Assembly (NCBI GenBank): GCA_020439945.1
Contig: JAGRPB010000002.1
Span: 37,988 to 101,987 of the forward strand
From: Verrucomicrobiia bacterium
GTDB lineage: Bacteria; Verrucomicrobiota; Verrucomicrobiia; Verrucomicrobiales; DEV007
DNA: 64,000 nt
Direction of reading: 5' to 3'
Part shown: one piece after another, positions 1,286-20,494 of the stretch
How the letters are laid out: each line of letters opens with the position of its first letter
Numbering within the stretch: position 1 is the stretch's first letter
The notes under the pieces: model-generated
Databases searched by the model: none
The model's input: the letters and a program-made list of their open reading frames with translations, nothing else
Told to the model about the DNA's origin: nothing
Translations under genes and position numbers: made by a program

Positions 1286-4200
1286 ATGCCGAAAAAATCC
1301 CAGCGCAGCCACCAGTCACCGGACGACGCGAAGGCGGTGGTGTCCGCCTTGCTGGAGCGCGCCGCGGCCTGCCCGCCTTTTGCGGAGCGGTTGGATCGCC
1401 TCGACCTGGCGACTCCGGAGAATCCCGTCGCCTTCGATCACGTGGCGGAAGCAGGTCAGCCGTTTTACGCCGCGCTGACCGCTCAGCGTTGGCTGGCGGA
1501 TTCCGCAGCAGCGAACAACCACGGCACGCCCATTGTCTGGATCGCCTGTCCTCACGTGAAACTGCAGGAGATCGTTCACGCCGAGCTTCCGGTCTGGGGC
1601 GTCGACGCCGCGTTTTTGCCGGAATACGAGTGGGTGGGATTCGAGGACGTCATCCCCGATCCCGAGTCAGCCGCGGAACGGCTCGCCACGCTCCAGCGGC
1701 TCTGGGAAAAGCGTGCTTCCGGCAAACCACAGGTCGTGGTTCTCTGCCGCGGCAGTTTCGAGGAAGCCGCGCCGAAACCGGGTTCGCTGTCGGATCAATC
1801 CCTGCGCCTTTCCGTTGGCGACACCCACGATCCGGTGGCGTTGGCGGAGCAGTTGACTCAAGCGGGCTACGAGAAGGAAGCCCAAGTGTTTCAGCGAGGC
1901 CAGTTCGCGGTTCGCGGCGGCATCGTCGATGTCTTTTCGTGGCAATCGACCGCTCCGGTTCGTCTCGAACTTTTTGGCGATGAGATCGATTCGATCCGGG
2001 AATTCGACGTCGACGAACAGACCTCGGTCCGGAAACTGGAATCGACCGAGATTCTCCTCAGCGAAGCCAATCTCGAACCGGACGCGACCCTGGAGGATTA
2101 CCTCGATGAGAAGGCCGACCTCGTCATCGCCATCGAGCCCGATGCCGAAGAGTCCATCGCCAGCGTCAACATCACTTCTACCTCCTATTCCTATTCCTCG
2201 TCTTCTTCCTATTCCAAATCAGACGACAAGGAAGAAGAAGACGAGGAATATGACGAAGAGGGGGAAAGCTACGCCGTCGCCTGTTACGAAAATCCGCTTG
2301 GCGTCTTCGAAGCCGGCGACTTCATCCTCCAGGAACAACGCCGTCACGATTTCGCCCAACAGATGGCGGAATGGGAAAACGAAGGCTGGAACGCGGCGAT
2401 GGCCTTCAATTCTCAGGGCGAGATCGACCGCTTCCGCGAACTGGTTTACTCCGAGCATCTCGATTCCGGGATCCTGCGCACGATCTTCGGCTCGCTCAGT
2501 CGCGGCTTCACCATTCCCGAGGCGAAGATCGCGATTCTCTGCGATGCGGAAATCTTCGGCCGTTACCAACATCAGCGAACCCAGCGCCGCATGCGTCTGG
2601 CCCAGCAGCGGCAGGTCACCCAGCGACAGGCCAGTCTCAGCGAATTCAACTACGGCGACCTGGTCGTTCACGCCGACTACGGCATCGGGAAATTCAAGGG
2701 CATTCGCGACCGCGAGACCGATACCCGCGACGGCGCCAAGCGCGAGGAAGTCCTCGAGATCGAATACGCCGACGAAGCGCGGCTTTTCGTCCCGCTCGAC
2801 CAGGCGCATCTCGTCTCCCGCTATGTCGGCACCGGAAAAAAAGCGCCCAAGCTGAGCCGACTGGGAGACAAGCGCTGGTCGCGCATCCGCAAAGACGCCG
2901 AGCGTTCCATTCTCGACTACGCCGCCCGGCTCCTGTCGGTTCAGGCCGAGCGCCAGACTCACACCGGCTTTTCCCATCCGCCCGACAACAAGTGGCAGTG
3001 GGAATTCGAGAACGCTTTCATCTACAAGGAAACGCCCGACCAACTTCGCGCCATCGAGGATGCCAAGGAGGACATGGAATCGGATCGTCCCATGGACCGG
3101 CTGGTCTGCGGCGACGTCGGATTCGGCAAGACCGAGGTCGCCATCCGCGCCGCCTTCAAAGCCGTGATGAGCGGCAAGCAGGTCGCCATGCTCGCGCCGA
3201 CGACGGTGCTGGCCGACCAGCACTATCACAATTTCCGGGAGCGAATGTCGGACTTTCCGGTCACCATCGAACTGCTCAGCCGCTACCGGACCGCCGCCCA
3301 ACAGCGCCAGACTTTGGAGAAGATGGCGAACGGCAGTGTCGACATCGTCATTGGCACCCATCGACTCATCTCGAAGGACGTGCGCTACAAGGATCTCGGC
3401 CTGGTGGTGATCGATGAGGAGCAACGTTTCGGCGTTCAGCACAAGGAACGCTTCAAGGAGATGTTCCGCCTCGTCGACGTGCTCACGCTGTCTGCCACAC
3501 CGATTCCGCGAACGCTTTATCTCTCACTCATGGGCGTGATGAACATGTCCACCATCGAGACGCCGCCACCGAATCGTTATCCGGTCTCCACCTCGGTCTG
3601 TCCCTACGACGAGCGCACCATCCGCGCGGCTATCCAGAAGGAACTCGCCCGGCAGGGCCAGGTTTTCTTTCTCCACAACCGGGTGAAAACCATCCGGGGC
3701 ATGAAGAAGCGGATCGAGGATCTCGTGCCGGGCGCGCGAGTCGAGGTCGGCCACGGCCAGATGGACGACGATGAACTGGAAGAAGTGATGAACCGCTTCA
3801 TTCGCCAGGAAATCGACGTGCTTGTCTGCACCACCATCATCGAGAGCGGCGTCGACATTCCCAACGCCAACACCATCATCATCGACCGTGCCGACCGCTT
3901 CGGACTCGCCGATCTCTACCAGCTCCGCGGCCGCGTGGGCCGGGCCGACCGCCGGGCCTATGCCTACCTCATGCTCCCGCGCGACATGCTGACCGTGGGT
4001 GACGCCCGGAAGCGCATCAACGCCATCAAGCAATACTCCTCGCTCGGCGCCGGTTTGAAGATCGAGATGCGCGACCTGGAAATTCGCGGCGCCGGAAACC
4101 TGCTCGGCACCCAGCAGAGCGGCCACATCGCCGCCATCGGATTCGACCTCTACTGCCAGCTGCTGAAACAGAGCGTCGGGAAACTCAAAGGCGAACCCGT

Positions 4201-4670: not shown

Positions 4671-5696
4671 ATGAAAGCCCTTTCACACGCCCTCACCTTC
4701 CCGGCCCTGGTTTGCGCCGGGCTGGTCGTTTCCCAGTTTCAGCCCATCAACACCGCCGCCGCGTCCGGATTCCAGGAAATCAACGCGCTCAAGGCGGTCG
4801 TCAATGGCGAGTCTATCACCTCCATCGAGGTCGATACCGCCGTCGCCACCCAGATCCAGATCTGGCTGCTCGAACACAAAAACGATCCCGGTCTCACCCA
4901 GGCCATCGTCGATGCCAAGGTCGAGGAGATGAAAAAGGAGGCCCTCAAGGATCTCATCGATCGCAAGCTGATCCTCGCGGAATTCAAGAAGATGGGCGGT
5001 TCCATCAAGGAAACCTACGTCGATACCGCCATCGATGAATTCATCACCAAGCGCTTCAAAGGCGACCGCGACAAGTTCCTTTCGGAACTGAAAAAAAGCG
5101 GCATGACCATTCGTCAGTTTCGCGACATGCAGCGCGAGCAGATCACCATCCAGGCGCTGCGCGGTCAGAACGACGGCCCCGAAACTCTCATCAACACGCC
5201 CACCGAGATGCAGGCGAAATACGACGAGATCAAGAACGAGTACGCCGAGGATCCGGAGATCATTCTCCGCATGCTGTCGCTTCCCAAGCAGACCGCCGAG
5301 AGCGATGAGGCCGCGCAAAAGCAACTCGTCAACGACATCCGCAAGCAACTCCAGGGCGGCGCCGATTTCGCCACCATGGCCCGGGCTCATTCCGCCGACA
5401 GCGCCGCCGCCGATGGTGGACTGGTGGGCGGCGGTCCGATCGGAAAAGACTATCTCAATGAAAAGCTGACCAGTATCGCTTTCGGTCTTTCTCCTCGCAA
5501 AGTCAGTGACGTGATCGACGACGGCCCCTACTGGCGCCTGATGTACGTGGATGCCCGCCAGGGTGGCGCCGTTCCGTCCTTCGAAGAGCTCAAGGACACT
5601 TGCGACAAGCTCCTCACCCAGGAGAAGCGCAAGGGCTACGTCGATCGCTGGCTCGAGAAACTGCGCCAGGACGCCGGCATCCGGGTCTACGATTGA
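4671..5696 (+). CDS. Secreted SurA-like peptidyl-prolyl isomerase (parvulin)
   Basis: 341 aa. A signal peptide (MKALSHALTFPALVCAGLVV) is followed by a SurA-type N-terminal chaperone region beginning ALKAVVNGESITSIEVD, then a PpiC/parvulin domain at about residues 195-295 (ILRMLSLPK, FATMARAHSAD, ADGGLVGGGPIGKDYL). Proteins of this kind assist folding of outer-membrane or periplasmic proteins. Start is ATG 4671, 37 nt after mfd on the same strand. The single parvulin domain and length suit a short SurA/PrsA relative rather than the two-domain E. coli SurA. The role is inferred from family. Confidence 0.9.
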   Translation: MKALSHALTFPALVCAGLVVSQFQPINTAAASGFQEINALKAVVNGESITSIEVDTAVATQIQIWLLEHKNDPGLTQAIVDAKVEEMKKEALKDLIDRKLILAEFKKMGGSIKETYVDTAIDEFITKRFKGDRDKFLSELKKSGMTIRQFRDMQREQITIQALRGQNDGPETLINTPTEMQAKYDEIKNEYAEDPEIILRMLSLPKQTAESDEAAQKQLVNDIRKQLQGGADFATMARAHSADSAAADGGLVGGGPIGKDYLNEKLTSIAFGLSPRKVSDVIDDGPYWRLMYVDARQGGAVPSFEELKDTCDKLLTQEKRKGYVDRWLEKLRQDAGIRVYD

Positions 5697-15881: not shown

Positions 15882-15889
15882 TCTAGAGG

Positions 15890-16010
15890 AACGTCAAAGA
15901 ACAGGCGGCCCGACCTTCATGGCGGCGCTCCCGATTCCAGCTGCCGAATGAAACCACCAAAACCGGAACGCAAAAAGGCCGCTGTATGGGGTCGCCTTGC
16001 TCGGCTTGTT
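15890..16010 (-). other. Weak attC-like site C (cassette recombination site candidate)
   Basis: Follows the stop of the minus-strand gene at 16015 by a few bases. On the minus strand it starts GAAACAAGCCGAGCAAGGCG and ends TTTGACGTTCC, with AAC and GTT at the two ends and a possible imperfect stem between the GGCG-rich parts. Pairing is poorer than in sites A and B. Confidence 0.35.
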
Positions 16011-16014
16011 TCAA

Positions 16015-16605
16015 CTAGAAAGTAATTTCTTGGTTTGGATCGATGCCTTTGGCTCGCAGGCGCTTCTCATCTTCTTGCGTCTTGGACTTCTCGTCTAGCC
16101 CCACTTCCTTTAGTATCTTCTTCAGCTTCTTGAGAGACTTTCGCCTCTTCCAAATTGAAGCTCCATCAGGGTGCAGATACGGAGAAAAAACCTGCTCAAT
16201 CGGGTAGGCGAAACTCTCAAAATCGTCTACGACATCGACGCACTTTAGGCTCCACTCATCGACCTCGAATCTCATCTCCTCTCCACGTATCTTGTAGGGC
16301 TCCGTAAGGCGGACCCATTCCAGAAGCGATCCATAAATCTCGGAGATAAGCTCCCTGACCTCGGTCCCAAACAGAAAGTCGGCTTCAGTTAGCGAATGTG
16401 TCCAATCCAATGCGTCTTGCATGCACATCGGTTGAGACGCCCTCACCTTGTGGAGAACGCTCACGACCTGATTGTAGACCTTGAGACGGCGGTCATACAT
16501 GATTAGAGCCTTCTCGTCCCTCCTCAGCCGGTATTGCTGGTACGCAATGAGTGTCGTCAAAACGGCGATCAATGGCGTCAGGAGCGCTTGAAGGAGGTCG
16601 ATCAT
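16015..16605 (-). CDS. Membrane-anchored protein of unknown function, cassette-like
   Basis: 196 aa. A single N-terminal TM helix (LLQALLTPLIAVLTTLIAY) is followed by a charged, largely helical cytoplasmic part ending in a Lys/Glu-rich tail (KSLKKLKKILKEVGL). I recognise no domain. Base composition is clearly less GC-rich than the neighbours and no Shine-Dalgarno sequence is obvious. It is flanked by attC-like sites (15890-16010 and 16630-16746), as expected for an integron-type cassette gene. The ATG at 16605 is the only sensible start. Confidence 0.7.
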   Translation of the reverse strand: MIDLLQALLTPLIAVLTTLIAYQQYRLRRDEKALIMYDRRLKVYNQVVSVLHKVRASQPMCMQDALDWTHSLTEADFLFGTEVRELISEIYGSLLEWVRLTEPYKIRGEEMRFEVDEWSLKCVDVVDDFESFAYPIEQVFSPYLHPDGASIWKRRKSLKKLKKILKEVGLDEKSKTQEDEKRLRAKGIDPNQEITF

Positions 16606-16629
16606 CTAATCACTAGCAGTTTTTGCGCT

Positions 16630-16746
16630 AACTTCCGAGTCATCTCAAATCTGACCGAGGGTGAACTCCGACTTCTGGGTTGACGGTTGAATAGTCATGG
16701 TGCCTCCGATTCGCCAAGGGTCAGGTGTTGAGGCGGATGTCTTGTT
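16630..16746 (-). other. attC-like recombination site B
   Basis: On the minus strand: CCGAACAAGACATCC...CCTGACC, a 62-nt centre, then GGTCAGATTTGAGATGACTC...GTTAGC. Paired blocks are AAC/GTT at the ends, TCAA/TTGA, and CTGACC/GGTCAG, separated by unpaired spacers. It begins 5 nt after the stop at 16751 and ends about 25 nt before the next start. The first half shares CGAACAAG and CCTGACC with site A. Confidence 0.55.
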
Positions 16747-16750
16747 CGGT

Positions 16751-17500
16751 TCAGTCGCTTCCCAAGCTGTTTTTCTTCCACCCAGCGTTGATGAGTTTTT
16801 GAAGCTGTTCATTGCTGTGGCACGCAGCCTTATAGGAGTAGCATGGAACAACTTTACCGTCTGACATCTCAAACTCATAGAATACAGAGGCGAGAAGATA
16901 TCCGTCAGGATGAGAATAAAATGTCTCTTCGTTTCTCCAAACATGTTTCCAAAGTTTGTCCCTCCCGCCGGTCCAGATCCGTCGCGCATCTCGAAAGATT
17001 GAGGGAGGCGTTTCGTCTCCATACATGCCGGCCGAATTGCTTGAATACAAAATAGAGGCTAGCGAGAGCGTCACGATAAATGGTGCAAGATCACCTTCCG
17101 TAACCGTCCACTCATCTGTCTTTCTTCCGGCCCGGGTTACGATCTCATGACCATGTTCTGCCGGTCTTACGCCGAGCTCGATTAGGTTCTCGCGGCCCAC
17201 AAGGACAAGGATATCGTCCTTGAGCGGCGGCGGCCAGTCAACAGCATGCGAGTGCCAATGACGAGTTGCTTGAGGATATCGCTCAGCGAGCGAGTAGAGA
17301 GTATCAATGATTTCAGGATATTCCTTGGGAAGAACTACAGGCGGTGCAGTAGGTTCAGCTGGCGTTTTTCGATACCATCCTTCGACAAACCTTCCCAGGA
17401 TATCGCAGAATGGCTGTCCATCGGCAAACGAAGAGAGCGGTGCCGCCGTAGACGCAACCGAAGCCGCAAGGATTCGTTTCAGGAATAGTCTCCGATTCAT
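16751..17500 (-). CDS. Putative Tat-exported protein of unknown function, cassette-like
   Basis: 249 aa. The N-terminus MNRRLFLKRILAASVAS fits a twin-arginine signal (RRLFLK) with a short hydrophobic segment and AxA-like cleavage region before DGQPF. The mature part has no domain I recognise; it contains KEYPEIIDTLYSLAERYPQA and a Cys pair late in the chain (PCYSYKAACHS). Start ATG 17500 is chosen over 17524 because it begins the Tat motif and lies 8 nt after the attC-like site A. GC content is low compared with the region. Confidence 0.72.
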   Translation of the reverse strand: MNRRLFLKRILAASVASTAAPLSSFADGQPFCDILGRFVEGWYRKTPAEPTAPPVVLPKEYPEIIDTLYSLAERYPQATRHWHSHAVDWPPPLKDDILVLVGRENLIELGVRPAEHGHEIVTRAGRKTDEWTVTEGDLAPFIVTLSLASILYSSNSAGMYGDETPPSIFRDARRIWTGGRDKLWKHVWRNEETFYSHPDGYLLASVFYEFEMSDGKVVPCYSYKAACHSNEQLQKLINAGWKKNSLGSD

Positions 17501-17507
17501 TTTAAAC

Positions 17508-17630
17508 CGAACGTCAGAGCACACACACCGCCTGACGGCAGCCGCGCGTTGACTGTGGGTTTAGGGTTCTAATCACGGTAAGAATTCGACTCAGAGCGGG
17601 TCAGGCGGTTGTCGTGCTGCGGCTTGTTCG
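17508..17630 (-). other. attC-like recombination site A
   Basis: The best of the three sites. On the minus strand the halves are CGAAC-7 nt-AGCAC-4 nt-ACCGCCTGAC and GTCAGGCGGT-4 nt-GTGCT-5 nt-GTTCG, separated by 63 nt. Conserved AAC/GTT ends, two paired boxes with unequal spacers, and a long central region are the hallmarks of integron attC sites. Its R'-like end (GTTCGGT, one mismatch from GTTRRRY) is 8 nt from the next start. Confidence 0.65.
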
Positions 17631-17652
17631 CCTTGTTTTGTTAGGTGAGGTT

Positions 17653-18054
17653 CTACGACACCCAATACTTCTTGAGGGGCGTCCAGCGCACGTAGCCAAA
17701 GGCCCAAAACACGAGACGGCGCCCCCCAAAGCCGGATAGGATGTGGTCCTGCCAGGCAGCTTCGTCGATGATCACGAACGGAGCAACAGCCACGCCACGT
17801 GATCGGCATCTCCAAGGCGTCTCGGGCACGTAATCGGGAAATGATGGCGGAAAACTGAGCTCGAACATCGCGATCCGCTCCACTGGCATCTCGACATTCG
17901 ACGGTCCGCCGAATCCGACCGAACCCATCGCCAGTTCTCGGTCGAAGGCATCGTCTACTTGAGGCAATCCTACCAGAGCAGTCATCGCCCAAAGGAAGAG
18001 GTATCCACCCGCCAGCCAGATGAGCACCTTCTTCTTGCGTGTTAGGCTCTTCAT
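17653..18054 (-). CDS. Small membrane protein of unknown function, cassette-like
   Basis: 133 aa from ATG 18054 (MKSLTRKKKVLIWLAGGYLF), giving a basic N-terminus and one TM helix, then an extracytoplasmic region with PSNVEMPVERIAMFELSFPP and GFGGRRLVFWAFGYVRW. The frame is open upstream to 18267 but that part lacks protein character. GTTCGCC lies 6 nt before the ATG, like the R' ends of the attC-like sites. No domain recognised. First gene of the presumed cassette run. Confidence 0.65.
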   Translation of the reverse strand: MKSLTRKKKVLIWLAGGYLFLWAMTALVGLPQVDDAFDRELAMGSVGFGGPSNVEMPVERIAMFELSFPPSFPDYVPETPWRCRSRGVAVAPFVIIDEAAWQDHILSGFGGRRLVFWAFGYVRWTPLKKYWVS

Positions 18055-18472
18055 TTTGTGGCGAACAGTAGTGTTTACGCACCTGCATATCGATATATTT
18101 CTGACGAAACGGGCTGCGCCTTTCGAAAGTATATGCCGGGCAACCGCGTTTGCGTCAATCCTTTCCAAGGCTATTGCGACCCACGATCGGCACGCGGGAA
18201 TCGTTTCGGGATTCTTGATCGTTGGTGCCAGTTGATTGCTGGATACCTTTCCTAAAATATCCAGCATTCAGGATATCCGTAACACCTTGCCGCCGTCGTT
18301 TGGACACTTCGCGAGCTGCGAGTGGCTTTCCCGAAGGTGAGCGCGAAAAGTTCAAGAAGGGGCGGTTTCCAACCGCCCGCACTGCCATGAAGAACGGAGG
18401 CATGGGCTTCGCAGGCGATTTCAAATCGCCTCTCCTTGAGTTCCGCCCGCAGTCTCGCCTTTTCTTGTACCC
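18055..18472. other. Gene-free region with palindromic repeats
   Basis: No credible gene. 18360-18378 (GGGCGGTTTCCAACCGCCC) and 18413-18431 (AGGCGATTTCAAATCGCCT) are palindromes of the type seen at 8441-8512, separated by 34 nt beginning GCACTGCC, similar to the GCACTACC spacer there. The part at 18060-18300 is AT-richer and may hold the promoter or integration point of the cassette genes, but I cannot identify it. Confidence 0.6.
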
Positions 18473-18538
18473 AAGAGGGTCAGGTCGCGGACCTAAGAGG
18501 GTTGAGTCGCGGACCCAACAGGGTTCAATCGGTGGTTG
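18473..18538. repeat. Three tandem 22-nt repeat units
   Basis: Units start at 18473, 18495 and 18517, each beginning AAGAGGGT or AACAGGGT, the first two followed by a GTCGCGGACC block. The third runs into the 3' end of the gene at 18525. Related units occur at 29083, 47046 and 61726. Confidence 0.75.
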
Positions 18539-18947
18539 TTCCTTCGATGGTTGGCTTTGTTTCTTCGGGATGAAGGAGGGCGGGCCAATCGATGAGTTTT
18601 CCAGAGACTCGAACGATCTGGATGCCATACCAGAAGCCGGGCAGGTAGAGCGCGAAGACGATGAGGAAGGTGATCCAGAGGCGAAGACGGAGCTTCTGAA
18701 ACAGGATCGGGATGAGGGTCAGTAGGATGACGGTTCCCAAGGAGAAGAATCGGAACGCCCGATCGTTTCGCAGGACTTCGATCGCGTGGTCTGTCTTTTC
18801 GTTCTGCAGTAGGAAAAATTCTCGCTGCTCGGCTTTCCAGAAGGCGTAGTCGCGATTGTAGCTGATCACGCCGAAATGGAGGGCAATGACGAAGATCGCG
18901 AATGCGATCGCCCAGGTCCGCTCCATGGGTTCCGGCTTCGACTTCAT
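18525..18947 (-). CDS. Small multi-pass membrane protein, unknown function
   Basis: 140 aa with about three TM helices: AIAFAIFVIALHFGVI, FFSLGTVILLTLIPILF and LWITFLIVFALYLPGFWYG. The ATG (18947) overlaps the stop of the sulfatase upstream by 4 bp (ATGA), so translation is coupled. Its last codons are formed by a dispersed repeat unit. No family recognised; by context it may serve the sulfatase, but nothing in the sequence shows that. Confidence 0.7.
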   Translation of the reverse strand: MKSKPEPMERTWAIAFAIFVIALHFGVISYNRDYAFWKAEQREFFLLQNEKTDHAIEVLRNDRAFRFFSLGTVILLTLIPILFQKLRLRLWITFLIVFALYLPGFWYGIQIVRVSGKLIDWPALLHPEETKPTIEGTTTD

Positions 18948-20494
18948 CTTTTTTCAGCCGCCTGACGAGCGGAGGTGTCGCGGACTTGGTCGAGGAGCTG
19001 GCTCATGGCGGTGAGGCGGTCGGGTTCTTGGGGCCAGCGATTGGCTTTTTCCTGGGGATCGCCGCCGAGGTGATAGAGCTGGCCTTCGGGTTCGCCGGGT
19101 TTCGGCTTCAGGATATTCGGACGGGTGAAGCCACCGGAGGCGCGGCCTTCGATGTATTTCCAGTCGTCTTTTCGCAGGGCGAACATGCCGCGGAGGGAAT
19201 GATGAATGGAAAACGGACGCGCGGTTTCGGCTTCGCCGGTTAGGACGGGCAGGAAGGAAAAGCTGTCCATGCCGGAGGTCCCCTCCCCGCTCTGGCCAAC
19301 GAGCTCGGCGACGGTGGCGAAGACGTCGGTGAGTTCGACGAGGGCGTCGCTGACCTGGCCGCCTTTGACCCGGGCGGGCCAGCGGACGAGGAAGGGCACG
19401 CGGTGGCCGCCTTCGTAGATGTCGGCCTTGGTGCCGCGCCAGTCGGCGTTGCTCTGGTGACCGAACTGTTTCACGTAATCGCCGCGCGGGGTGAGCGGGA
19501 TTTTTCCGCCGTCATCGTCGGCGTGGAAATCCCACCAGTGCCAGAGTCCGCCGTTGTCGCTGGTGAAAAGGATGAGGGTGTCGTCGCTCATTCCGGCGGT
19601 CTCGAGCGCGGCCATGACTCGGCCGACTTCACGATCGGTTTCCCAGACGAAATCGCCGTAGTCGCCGGCCTGGCTTTTGCCCTTCGCATCGACGGACGGC
19701 GCGACGGGCAGGTGCGGGGAATTGAGCGGCAGGTAGAGAAAGAGAGGCTCGTCGTGACCGGCGTGACTCTCGATGACGGAGACGGCTTCGTCGCCGAAGC
19801 GCGGGAGGACGTCGTGAATGTCGAAGCCGGGCGATTTCACGCCGGAGACTCCGGCGAGGAAGGTGGTGTCCTCGACCTGCTCGTGCCACTCGGTCGGCAG
19901 GGTCTCGACGCGGCGGTCGCGCAGGTAGGCGTAAGGGCTCATGTCGAGCGAGGCGGAGATGCCGAAGTAGGTATCGAAACCGACATCGACAGGGCCACCG
20001 GTGATGTCGCGCTCGAAGTCGATGCCTTCGCCGGAGCGGAATTTCTGCGGACCGCGTTCGCCGATGGCGTTGCCGTCCTGGTCGTGCCACTGCATGCCGA
20101 GGTGCCATTTGCCGACGCAGGCGGTGCGGTAGCCGACGCGCTTGAGCATGGTGGCGAGGGTGTTCTCGTTCTCCCCAATCAGGGGCGGTCCGAAGCCATC
20201 GAGGACGCCCTGTTTCAGCCAGGTGCGCCAGCAATAGCGCCCGGTGAGGAGGGTGTAGCGGGTCGGGGTGCAGACGGATGAAGGCGTGTGGGCATCGGTG
20301 AAGCGCACGCCCTCGGCGGCGAGGCGATCGAGATTCGGCGTGGGGATTTTCGAATCGGCCTGGTAGCACTGCGGATCGCCCCAGCCCATGTCGTCTGCGA
20401 GAATGATGACGATGTGGGGGTTTTTCGCACTCGCGCCGGAGACGGCCAGAAGCGCGGCAACGGTGAGAGCGAGGGTGAAACGGGAGAGAACCAT
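18944..20494 (-). CDS. Secreted arylsulfatase (formylglycine-dependent)
   Basis: 516 aa from ATG 20494 (MVLSRFTLALTVAALLAVSG), a clear Sec signal peptide. The catalytic motif is CTPTR with Cys75 as the residue converted to formylglycine, inside SVCTPTRYTLLTGRYCWRT. Metal ligands are in IILADDMGWGD and FTSDNGG, and GKWHLGMQW supplies active-site Lys/His. The enzyme removes sulfate esters, probably from polysaccharide, outside the cytoplasm. It is most like the second sulfatase at 39511-41070 (shared WRT.L.QGVL.GF.PPLI). A longer frame to 20968 was rejected because it has no signal peptide and overlaps the divergent region. Maturation enzyme is not in the window. Confidence 0.95.
   Translation of the reverse strand: MVLSRFTLALTVAALLAVSGASAKNPHIVIILADDMGWGDPQCYQADSKIPTPNLDRLAAEGVRFTDAHTPSSVCTPTRYTLLTGRYCWRTWLKQGVLDGFGPPLIGENENTLATMLKRVGYRTACVGKWHLGMQWHDQDGNAIGERGPQKFRSGEGIDFERDITGGPVDVGFDTYFGISASLDMSPYAYLRDRRVETLPTEWHEQVEDTTFLAGVSGVKSPGFDIHDVLPRFGDEAVSVIESHAGHDEPLFLYLPLNSPHLPVAPSVDAKGKSQAGDYGDFVWETDREVGRVMAALETAGMSDDTLILFTSDNGGLWHWWDFHADDDGGKIPLTPRGDYVKQFGHQSNADWRGTKADIYEGGHRVPFLVRWPARVKGGQVSDALVELTDVFATVAELVGQSGEGTSGMDSFSFLPVLTGEAETARPFSIHHSLRGMFALRKDDWKYIEGRASGGFTRPNILKPKPGEPEGQLYHLGGDPQEKANRWPQEPDRLTAMSQLLDQVRDTSARQAAEKR

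What the first reader, a model, noticed from the sequence alone, without database searches (positions are those of the whole stretch)
15890..18066. Integron-like cassette cluster without integrase
Three consecutive minus-strand orphan genes (17653, 16751, 16015) have lower GC and no recognisable family. Each is followed by a structured site; sites A and B share CGAACAAG and CCTGACC, fold into AAC/GTT-ended stems with two paired boxes and 62-63-nt centres, and abut the next start codon. This matches attC sites and cassette genes. If real it would be a CALIN-type array in a Verrucomicrobiota genome, carrying an exported Tat protein and two membrane proteins of unknown role.
Basis: partly seen in the sequence, partly recalled or inferred. 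Interest (0 to 1): 0.7.

Follow-up and report, generated by a model that had tools for sequence, protein, structure and literature searches.

The report
Integron array with attI, no integrase
A stretch of this Verrucomicrobiales genome is a genuine gene-capture array (three mobile gene cassettes behind their own landing site and probable promoter) that lacks the enzyme that moves the cassettes, and the same enzyme-less arrangement recurs across this genome and its relatives, which suggests that one integrase may serve many capture sites.

Summary
The finding is right, and incomplete. A covariance model built from 31 attC sites of related genomes (none from this genome) hits the 64-kb window three times, exactly at the three proposed sites on the minus strand (90.9, 49.5 and 19.7 bits). 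All three cassette genes have homologues lying inside attC-bounded cassettes elsewhere, two of them in integrons with an integrase. Close relatives have about 55 bp where this genome has 3.07 kb. So this is a promoter-position/attI/cassette platform without intI, not a bare attC cluster. The genome carries at least five such integrase-less, attI-headed arrays and one full-length intI, on another contig. A one-contig relative has a 16-attC integrase-less array 239 kb from its nearest intI, sharing a 99.6%-identical cassette with the intI-linked array. I conclude that these are probably non-autonomous integron platforms fed in trans; loss of intI from ordinary integrons is the main rival. Integrons and CALINs in Verrucomicrobiota are known; attI-headed, multi-copy integrase-less platforms look like a new variant.

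The parts
18064..18158 (-). attI site with conserved promoter-position box (-35-like TTGACG); cassette insertion point between G18066 and T18065
   Evidence: Only hit in the window of attI model R2 (built from 17 sites of other contigs and genomes, window excluded): 39.1 bits, E 5.4e-11. The same site lies next to intI in G001:C74, G001:C420 and G040. The promoter role is inferred; a strict sigma-70 scan finds none in the window copy.
17512..18065 (-). cassette 1 (554 nt)
   Evidence: Begins TTCGCC at the attI cut; complements R'' GGCGAAC of its own attC 7/7.
17653..18054 (-). cassette 1 gene, 133 aa, hydrophobic N-terminal stretch, no known family
   Evidence: 54% identical homologue is the first cassette at the attI of the intI-bearing integron G016:C10; no Pfam, NCBIfam or PADLOC hit.
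17506..17632 (-). attC A
   Evidence: R1 90.9 bits, E 6e-19; nearly the same site occurs in the G040 intI-linked array (L061:10874-11000).
16632..17511 (-). cassette 2 (880 nt)
   Evidence: Begins TTCGGT; complements R'' ACCGAAC of attC B 7/7.
16751..17500 (-). cassette 2 gene, 249 aa, Tat-like signal (MNRRLFLKR), no known family
   Evidence: 42% identical homologue in G109:C12 (another family), itself flanked by attC sites.
16626..16750 (-). attC B
   Evidence: R1 49.5 bits, E 1.6e-9.
15892..16631 (-). cassette 3 (740 nt)
   Evidence: Lies between the G|TT of attC B and of attC C; start TTAGCG does not match R'' TTGAAAC (3/7).
16015..16605 (-). cassette 3 gene, 196 aa, hydrophobic N-terminal stretch, no known family
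   Evidence: 63% identical homologue in G001:C420:1076-1666, a cassette of an intI-bearing integron; only 3 of 387 genomes of the order have a match, this one included.
15886..16014 (-). attC C, degenerate
   Evidence: R1 19.7 bits, E 0.011 in 64 kb; spacers AAGCCG and CTTTGAC match those of the C166 attC.
15882..18953 (.). segment absent from congeners (contains the array plus the gene at 18525-18947)
   Evidence: G002 has about 55 bp between the homologues of the flanking stop codons, G001 a similarly short gap.

Best explanation
This is a non-autonomous integron platform: a promoter-position/attI head followed by three gene cassettes read in the same direction, with no integrase gene in cis. 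Shown from sequence: attC sites, attI, cassette boundaries at G|TT, cassette homologues in other arrays, absence of intI and of any intI remnant nearby, absence of the locus in congeners. Inferred: an IntI encoded elsewhere in the cell (now or in the recent past) inserts incoming cassettes at this attI and can excise them through attC, and the cassettes are transcribed from the promoter-like box upstream of attI. Cassette 1, next to attI, would be the newest; cassette 3, with a decayed attC, the oldest and probably no longer mobile by itself. Sub-confidences: true cassette array 0.97; true attI at its head 0.93; fed in trans rather than a frozen relic 0.6.
For: attC: independent model hits the three sites and nothing else; the model rests on strong covariation (0 of 500 shuffles); six g19 genomes without intI give zero hits. 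attI: R2 hits the window once, abutting cassette 1, and sites of the same model adjoin intI at six loci of relatives. Boundaries: R'' complements the cassette's own start 7/7 for cassettes 1 and 2, and in 54 of 62 cassettes over 12 arrays, including 15 of 15 tested in the integrase-less G040 array. Mobility: all three cassette genes have homologues bounded by attC in other genomes. Trans action: integrase-less attI-headed arrays recur in G000 (C221, C287, C446, C180, C430), G001, G040 and G042; no IntI sequence near them; in one-contig G040 the integrase-less array is 239 kb from the nearest intI, yet shares a 99.6%-identical 517-bp cassette with the intI-linked array. A full-length IntI is encoded on G000:C166.
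Against: The IntI on C166 is only 46-49% identical to those linked to the window-type attI, and its own attI is not detected by R2, so the cognate enzyme of this attI may be missing from the 90%-complete assembly or lost. Trans exchange is suggested by shared cassettes in G040, not shown in G000. Cassette copies can also spread by homologous recombination between arrays. attC C is decayed. The promoter of the window copy deviates from consensus.
Confidence: 0.68

Rival explanations
1. Relic: an ordinary integron inserted here, intI was then deleted cleanly, and the attI and cassettes are now frozen remains.
For: Loss of intI is a standard proposed origin of CALINs (PMC8618304); attC scores fall away from attI (90.9, 49.5, 19.7) and the last cassette is inconsistent.
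Against: No intI remnant within the window or around any of the integrase-less attI sites; integrase-less attI arrays outnumber intI-linked ones in G000, and similarity between copies stops about 100 bp upstream of the cut, at the promoter box, in several pairs; intact boundaries throughout and a recently shared cassette in the G040 integrase-less array.
Confidence: 0.25
2. Off-target (attG) insertion of cassettes at a non-integron site by a distant IntI, which happens to give a CALIN.
For: Known route (Loot 2024, cited in PMC12901181; PMC8618304); the segment is absent from congeners.
Against: The DNA upstream of cassette 1 is an attI of the type found next to intI, not arbitrary sequence.
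Confidence: 0.04
3. Assembly artefact: a complete integron was split, so intI only seems to be missing.
For: G000 is a 474-contig assembly and arrays often end contigs.
Against: The array lies inside a 133.8-kb contig with 78 kb upstream of attI, and both flanks are collinear with G002 and G001; the same arrangement occurs in a one-contig genome.
Confidence: 0.02
4. Chance stem-loops between ordinary vertically inherited genes.
For: Folding energies do not stand out.
Against: Covariance hits at 6e-19 and 1.6e-9, boundary signatures, cassette homologues in other arrays, empty locus in congeners.
Confidence: 0.01

Closest known systems
[quoted passage not shown] IntegronFinder, PMC9024848)
   Different: Headed by a recognisable attI and a promoter-position box; CALINs as described are defined by attC only, and the passages I read do not report an attI at their head.
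Complete chromosomal integron of the same genus (G001:C74, G001:C420; also G040)
   Same: Same attI type and spacing to the promoter box, same attC architecture, homologous cassettes.
   Different: No intI gene or remnant upstream of attI.
SALIN (single attC without integrase; Shewanella, PMC9229058)
   Same: Other loci of this genome carry single cassettes far from intI (for example C287).
   Different: The C287 and C446 single-attC loci too are headed by attI.
attG insertion of cassettes (Loot et al. 2024, seen only as cited in PMC12901181 and PMC12444791)
   Same: Cassettes away from the intI locus, insertion at G|TT.
   Different: Here the insertion site is a conserved attI, not an unrelated genomic sequence.

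Membership tests
Integron gene cassettes (attC) | R''-L''-L'-R' stem with AAC/GTT ends and extrahelical base, found by covariance | tested here: met
   A and B strong, C weak (E 0.011).
Integron gene cassettes (attC) | Cassette start complements the R'' of its own attC (circular cassette origin) | tested here: met
   7/7 for cassettes 1 and 2, 3/7 for cassette 3; 54/62 overall.
Integron gene cassettes (attC) | Same genes occur as cassettes in other arrays | tested here: met
   All three.
attI site | Same sequence adjacent to intI in relatives, ending at G|TT where the first cassette starts | tested here: met
attI site | IntI recombines cassettes into it | not testable with these tools
   Needs an in vivo recombination assay.
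Complete integron | intI adjacent to attI | tested here: not met
   No IntI sequence on C221 (tblastn).
CALIN | At least 2 attC sites without intI nearby | tested here: met
   Met, but the array also has attI.
attG (off-target) insertion | Insertion site is neither attI nor attC | tested here: not met
   Upstream DNA matches the attI model.

The most novel reading that the evidence does not exclude
Genomes of these Verrucomicrobiales carry a distributed integron: several dispersed, integrase-less promoter-attI platforms, each receiving cassettes, all served in trans by one or a few IntI enzymes, so that capture and expression of cassettes is spread over many chromosomal loci instead of one.
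Probability: 0.5. Interest if true: 0.75.

Novelty: new variant of a known kind. Interest (0 to 1): 0.57.

Why it matters
Integrons are described as one platform with intI next to attI, and clusters away from intI are usually read as debris or off-target insertions. If attI-headed platforms are multiplied and served in trans, then part of what is counted as CALINs are working capture and expression sites, cassette copies can be expressed from several promoters at once, and integron surveys that look for attI only beside intI undercount them. It also gives three cassette families of unknown function with independent evidence of mobility.

Tried and rejected
Rfam gave nothing in the window. Minimum-free-energy folding did not separate the sites from shuffles, so I relied on covariance. 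A short pattern for attC ends plus start codon found nothing. My own stem scanner ranked site B only fifth among minus-strand candidates and was used only to collect sites beside intI genes. Empty-site tests for two other clusters (C287, C461) were inconclusive: the flanks match different contigs or mainly repeats. I first read C287 as an attG insertion and dropped that when its upstream DNA proved to match the window's and the attI next to intI. Structure prediction of cassette proteins 2 and 3 from two-sequence alignments failed (mean pLDDT 35 and 44), so no fold search was made. Pfam, NCBIfam and PADLOC gave no family for the three cassette proteins. A scan of 84,980 genomes found no relative of cassette protein 1, although tblastn on loci already held did. 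A strict sigma-70 scan found no promoter in the window copy.

Full report
WHAT WAS CHECKED. The finding proposes three integron cassettes without an integrase at 15890-18066, minus strand. The sequence features are there as described. To test them without circularity I located integron integrases (TIGR02249) in relatives (25 of 57 genomes, 24 above the curated cut-off), took attC sites from the arrays beside some of them, aligned 31 and built covariance model R1. The alignment has strong covariation (0 of 500 shuffles reach the observed score; sliding the partner destroys it) and a nearly invariant unpaired G in the L'' arm, as expected of attC. R1 contains no site of this genome. It hits the window three times and nowhere else up to E=10: 17506-17632 (90.9 bits), 16626-16750 (49.5) and 15886-16014 (19.7), all minus. 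Six genomes of genus g19, which lack intI, give no hit at E<=0.001, whereas 45 of 57 relatives do.

CASSETTE ANATOMY. In a cassette, the R'' box of the attC pairs with the cassette's own first bases, because the two were joined in the circle. In the window this holds exactly for cassette 1 (start GTTCGCC, R'' GGCGAAC) and cassette 2 (GTTCGGT, ACCGAAC) and fails for cassette 3. Over 12 arrays it holds 7/7 in 54 of 62 cassettes. Genes 1-3 match no family in Pfam, NCBIfam or PADLOC. Each has a homologue that is itself a cassette: gene 1 (54%) is the first cassette at the attI of the intI-bearing integron G016:C10; gene 2 (42%) lies between attC sites in G109, of another family; gene 3 (63%) lies between attC sites in the intI-bearing integron G001:C420. 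Homologues of genes 2 and 3 are rare: 2 and 3 of 387 genomes of the order, this one included. That is decisive for cassette identity.

THE LOCUS. The flanking genes are a sulfatase (upstream) and a convergent 86-aa gene next to a 2-hydroxyacid dehydrogenase (downstream; families). In G002, collinear on both sides, about 55 bp separate the flanking stop codons, against 3.07 kb here; G001 likewise. The 86-aa gene stays next to the dehydrogenase in 26 of 26 named relatives examined, none with the cassette genes. Record titles place these relatives in Verrucomicrobiales. The extra DNA also holds a 140-aa gene (18525-18947) whose origin I could not determine.

THE HEAD OF THE ARRAY. The bases before cassette 1 resemble those before an isolated cassette on contig C287, and both resemble the DNA between intI and the first cassette in G001:C74. 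Aligning 17 such sites, window excluded, gives a 100-nt element with TTGAC at a nearly fixed place about 95 nt from the cut and a nearly constant end (TAATACTG|TT). The resulting model R2 hits the window once, at 18064-18158 minus, 39.1 bits, E 5.4e-11, ending at the first bases of cassette 1. I take this to be an attI site. The TTGAC box is probably the cassette promoter; that is inferred from position and conservation, and the window copy fails a strict consensus scan.

INTEGRASE-LESS PLATFORMS RECUR. This genome has one full-length IntI (C166, 322 bits), 24 attC sites at E<=1 on 15 contigs and five R2-type attI sites (C221, C287, C446, C180, C430), none with IntI in cis although 1.9 to 78 kb of upstream sequence is available. 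G001 has 12 attI hits and three intI. The one-contig genome G040 has two attI sites: one beside intI and one 239 kb from the nearest intI, heading an array of 16 attC. The two G040 attI sites are 94.9% identical over 98 bp, with no similarity upstream of the promoter box. All 15 boundaries tested in the integrase-less array are intact, and it shares cassettes of 99.6% (517 bp) and 94.5% (492 bp) identity with the intI-linked array. This points to ongoing or recent exchange through a trans-acting IntI.

HOW IT MOST LIKELY WORKS. An IntI made elsewhere recombines circular cassettes into the attI at 18066|18065 and can excise them via attC; the cassettes are co-oriented and follow a promoter-like box. 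Shown: parts, boundaries, relatives, absence of intI. Inferred: activity, and which IntI acts. The C166 enzyme is only 46-49% identical to the enzymes linked to this attI type, and its own attI differs, so the cognate IntI may be missing from the assembly or lost. The decline in attC quality away from attI (90.9, 49.5, 19.7) fits oldest-last ageing; in the six G000 clusters with more than one attC, the attI-proximal one (or, where no attI is seen, the first in reading order) scores highest, which is suggestive only.

COMPARISON WITH WHAT IS KNOWN. Integrons are recorded in Verrucomicrobiota, and CALINs are attributed to off-target insertion, intI loss or rearrangement (PMC8618304). CALINs are defined by attC alone (PMC9024848) and can be mobilised in trans (PMC12444791, PMC9668308). 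Text searches for orphan, solitary, second or multiple attI returned nothing relevant to dispersed integrase-less attI platforms in the held open-access library, which is not proof of absence. I therefore file it as a new variant of a known kind.

Noticed in passing
L008:3462-4772 (G000:C166), L044, L042, L181: IntI proteins of this group (416-441 aa) carry about 100 extra N-terminal residues before the SAM-like domain (about 330-340 aa in the short-type relatives); the extension is alignable across genera.
   Followed up: partly
window 18475-18540 (minus); L098:7280-7320; L099:4450-4490; L129 about 1885-1915; L008 about 3228-3262: A palindromic intergenic repeat (ACCCTGTTGGGTCCGCGAC.CAACAGGGT) recurs in the genus; it occupies the empty site in G001/G002, and repeated left-arm copies lie upstream of attI here. 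Possibly a REP-like element or insertion target.
   Followed up: no
window 18525-18947 (minus): A 140-aa membrane-type protein gene overlaps the sulfatase stop and is absent from the G001/G002 locus; no family above cut-off.
   Followed up: partly
G001:C338 (L185:2087-2184 and 5053-5150): Two attI sites in the same orientation 3 kb apart on one contig, with attC sites between them and no IntI: tandem platforms.
   Followed up: no
G003: A 96%-complete congener with 31 attC hits but no IntI hit at E<=1e-60 and no attI of the R2 type.
   Followed up: no
L214:606-1400: Another Verrucomicrobiales genome has an unrelated cassette array two genes from the same dehydrogenase gene, in the same orientation.
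   Followed up: partly
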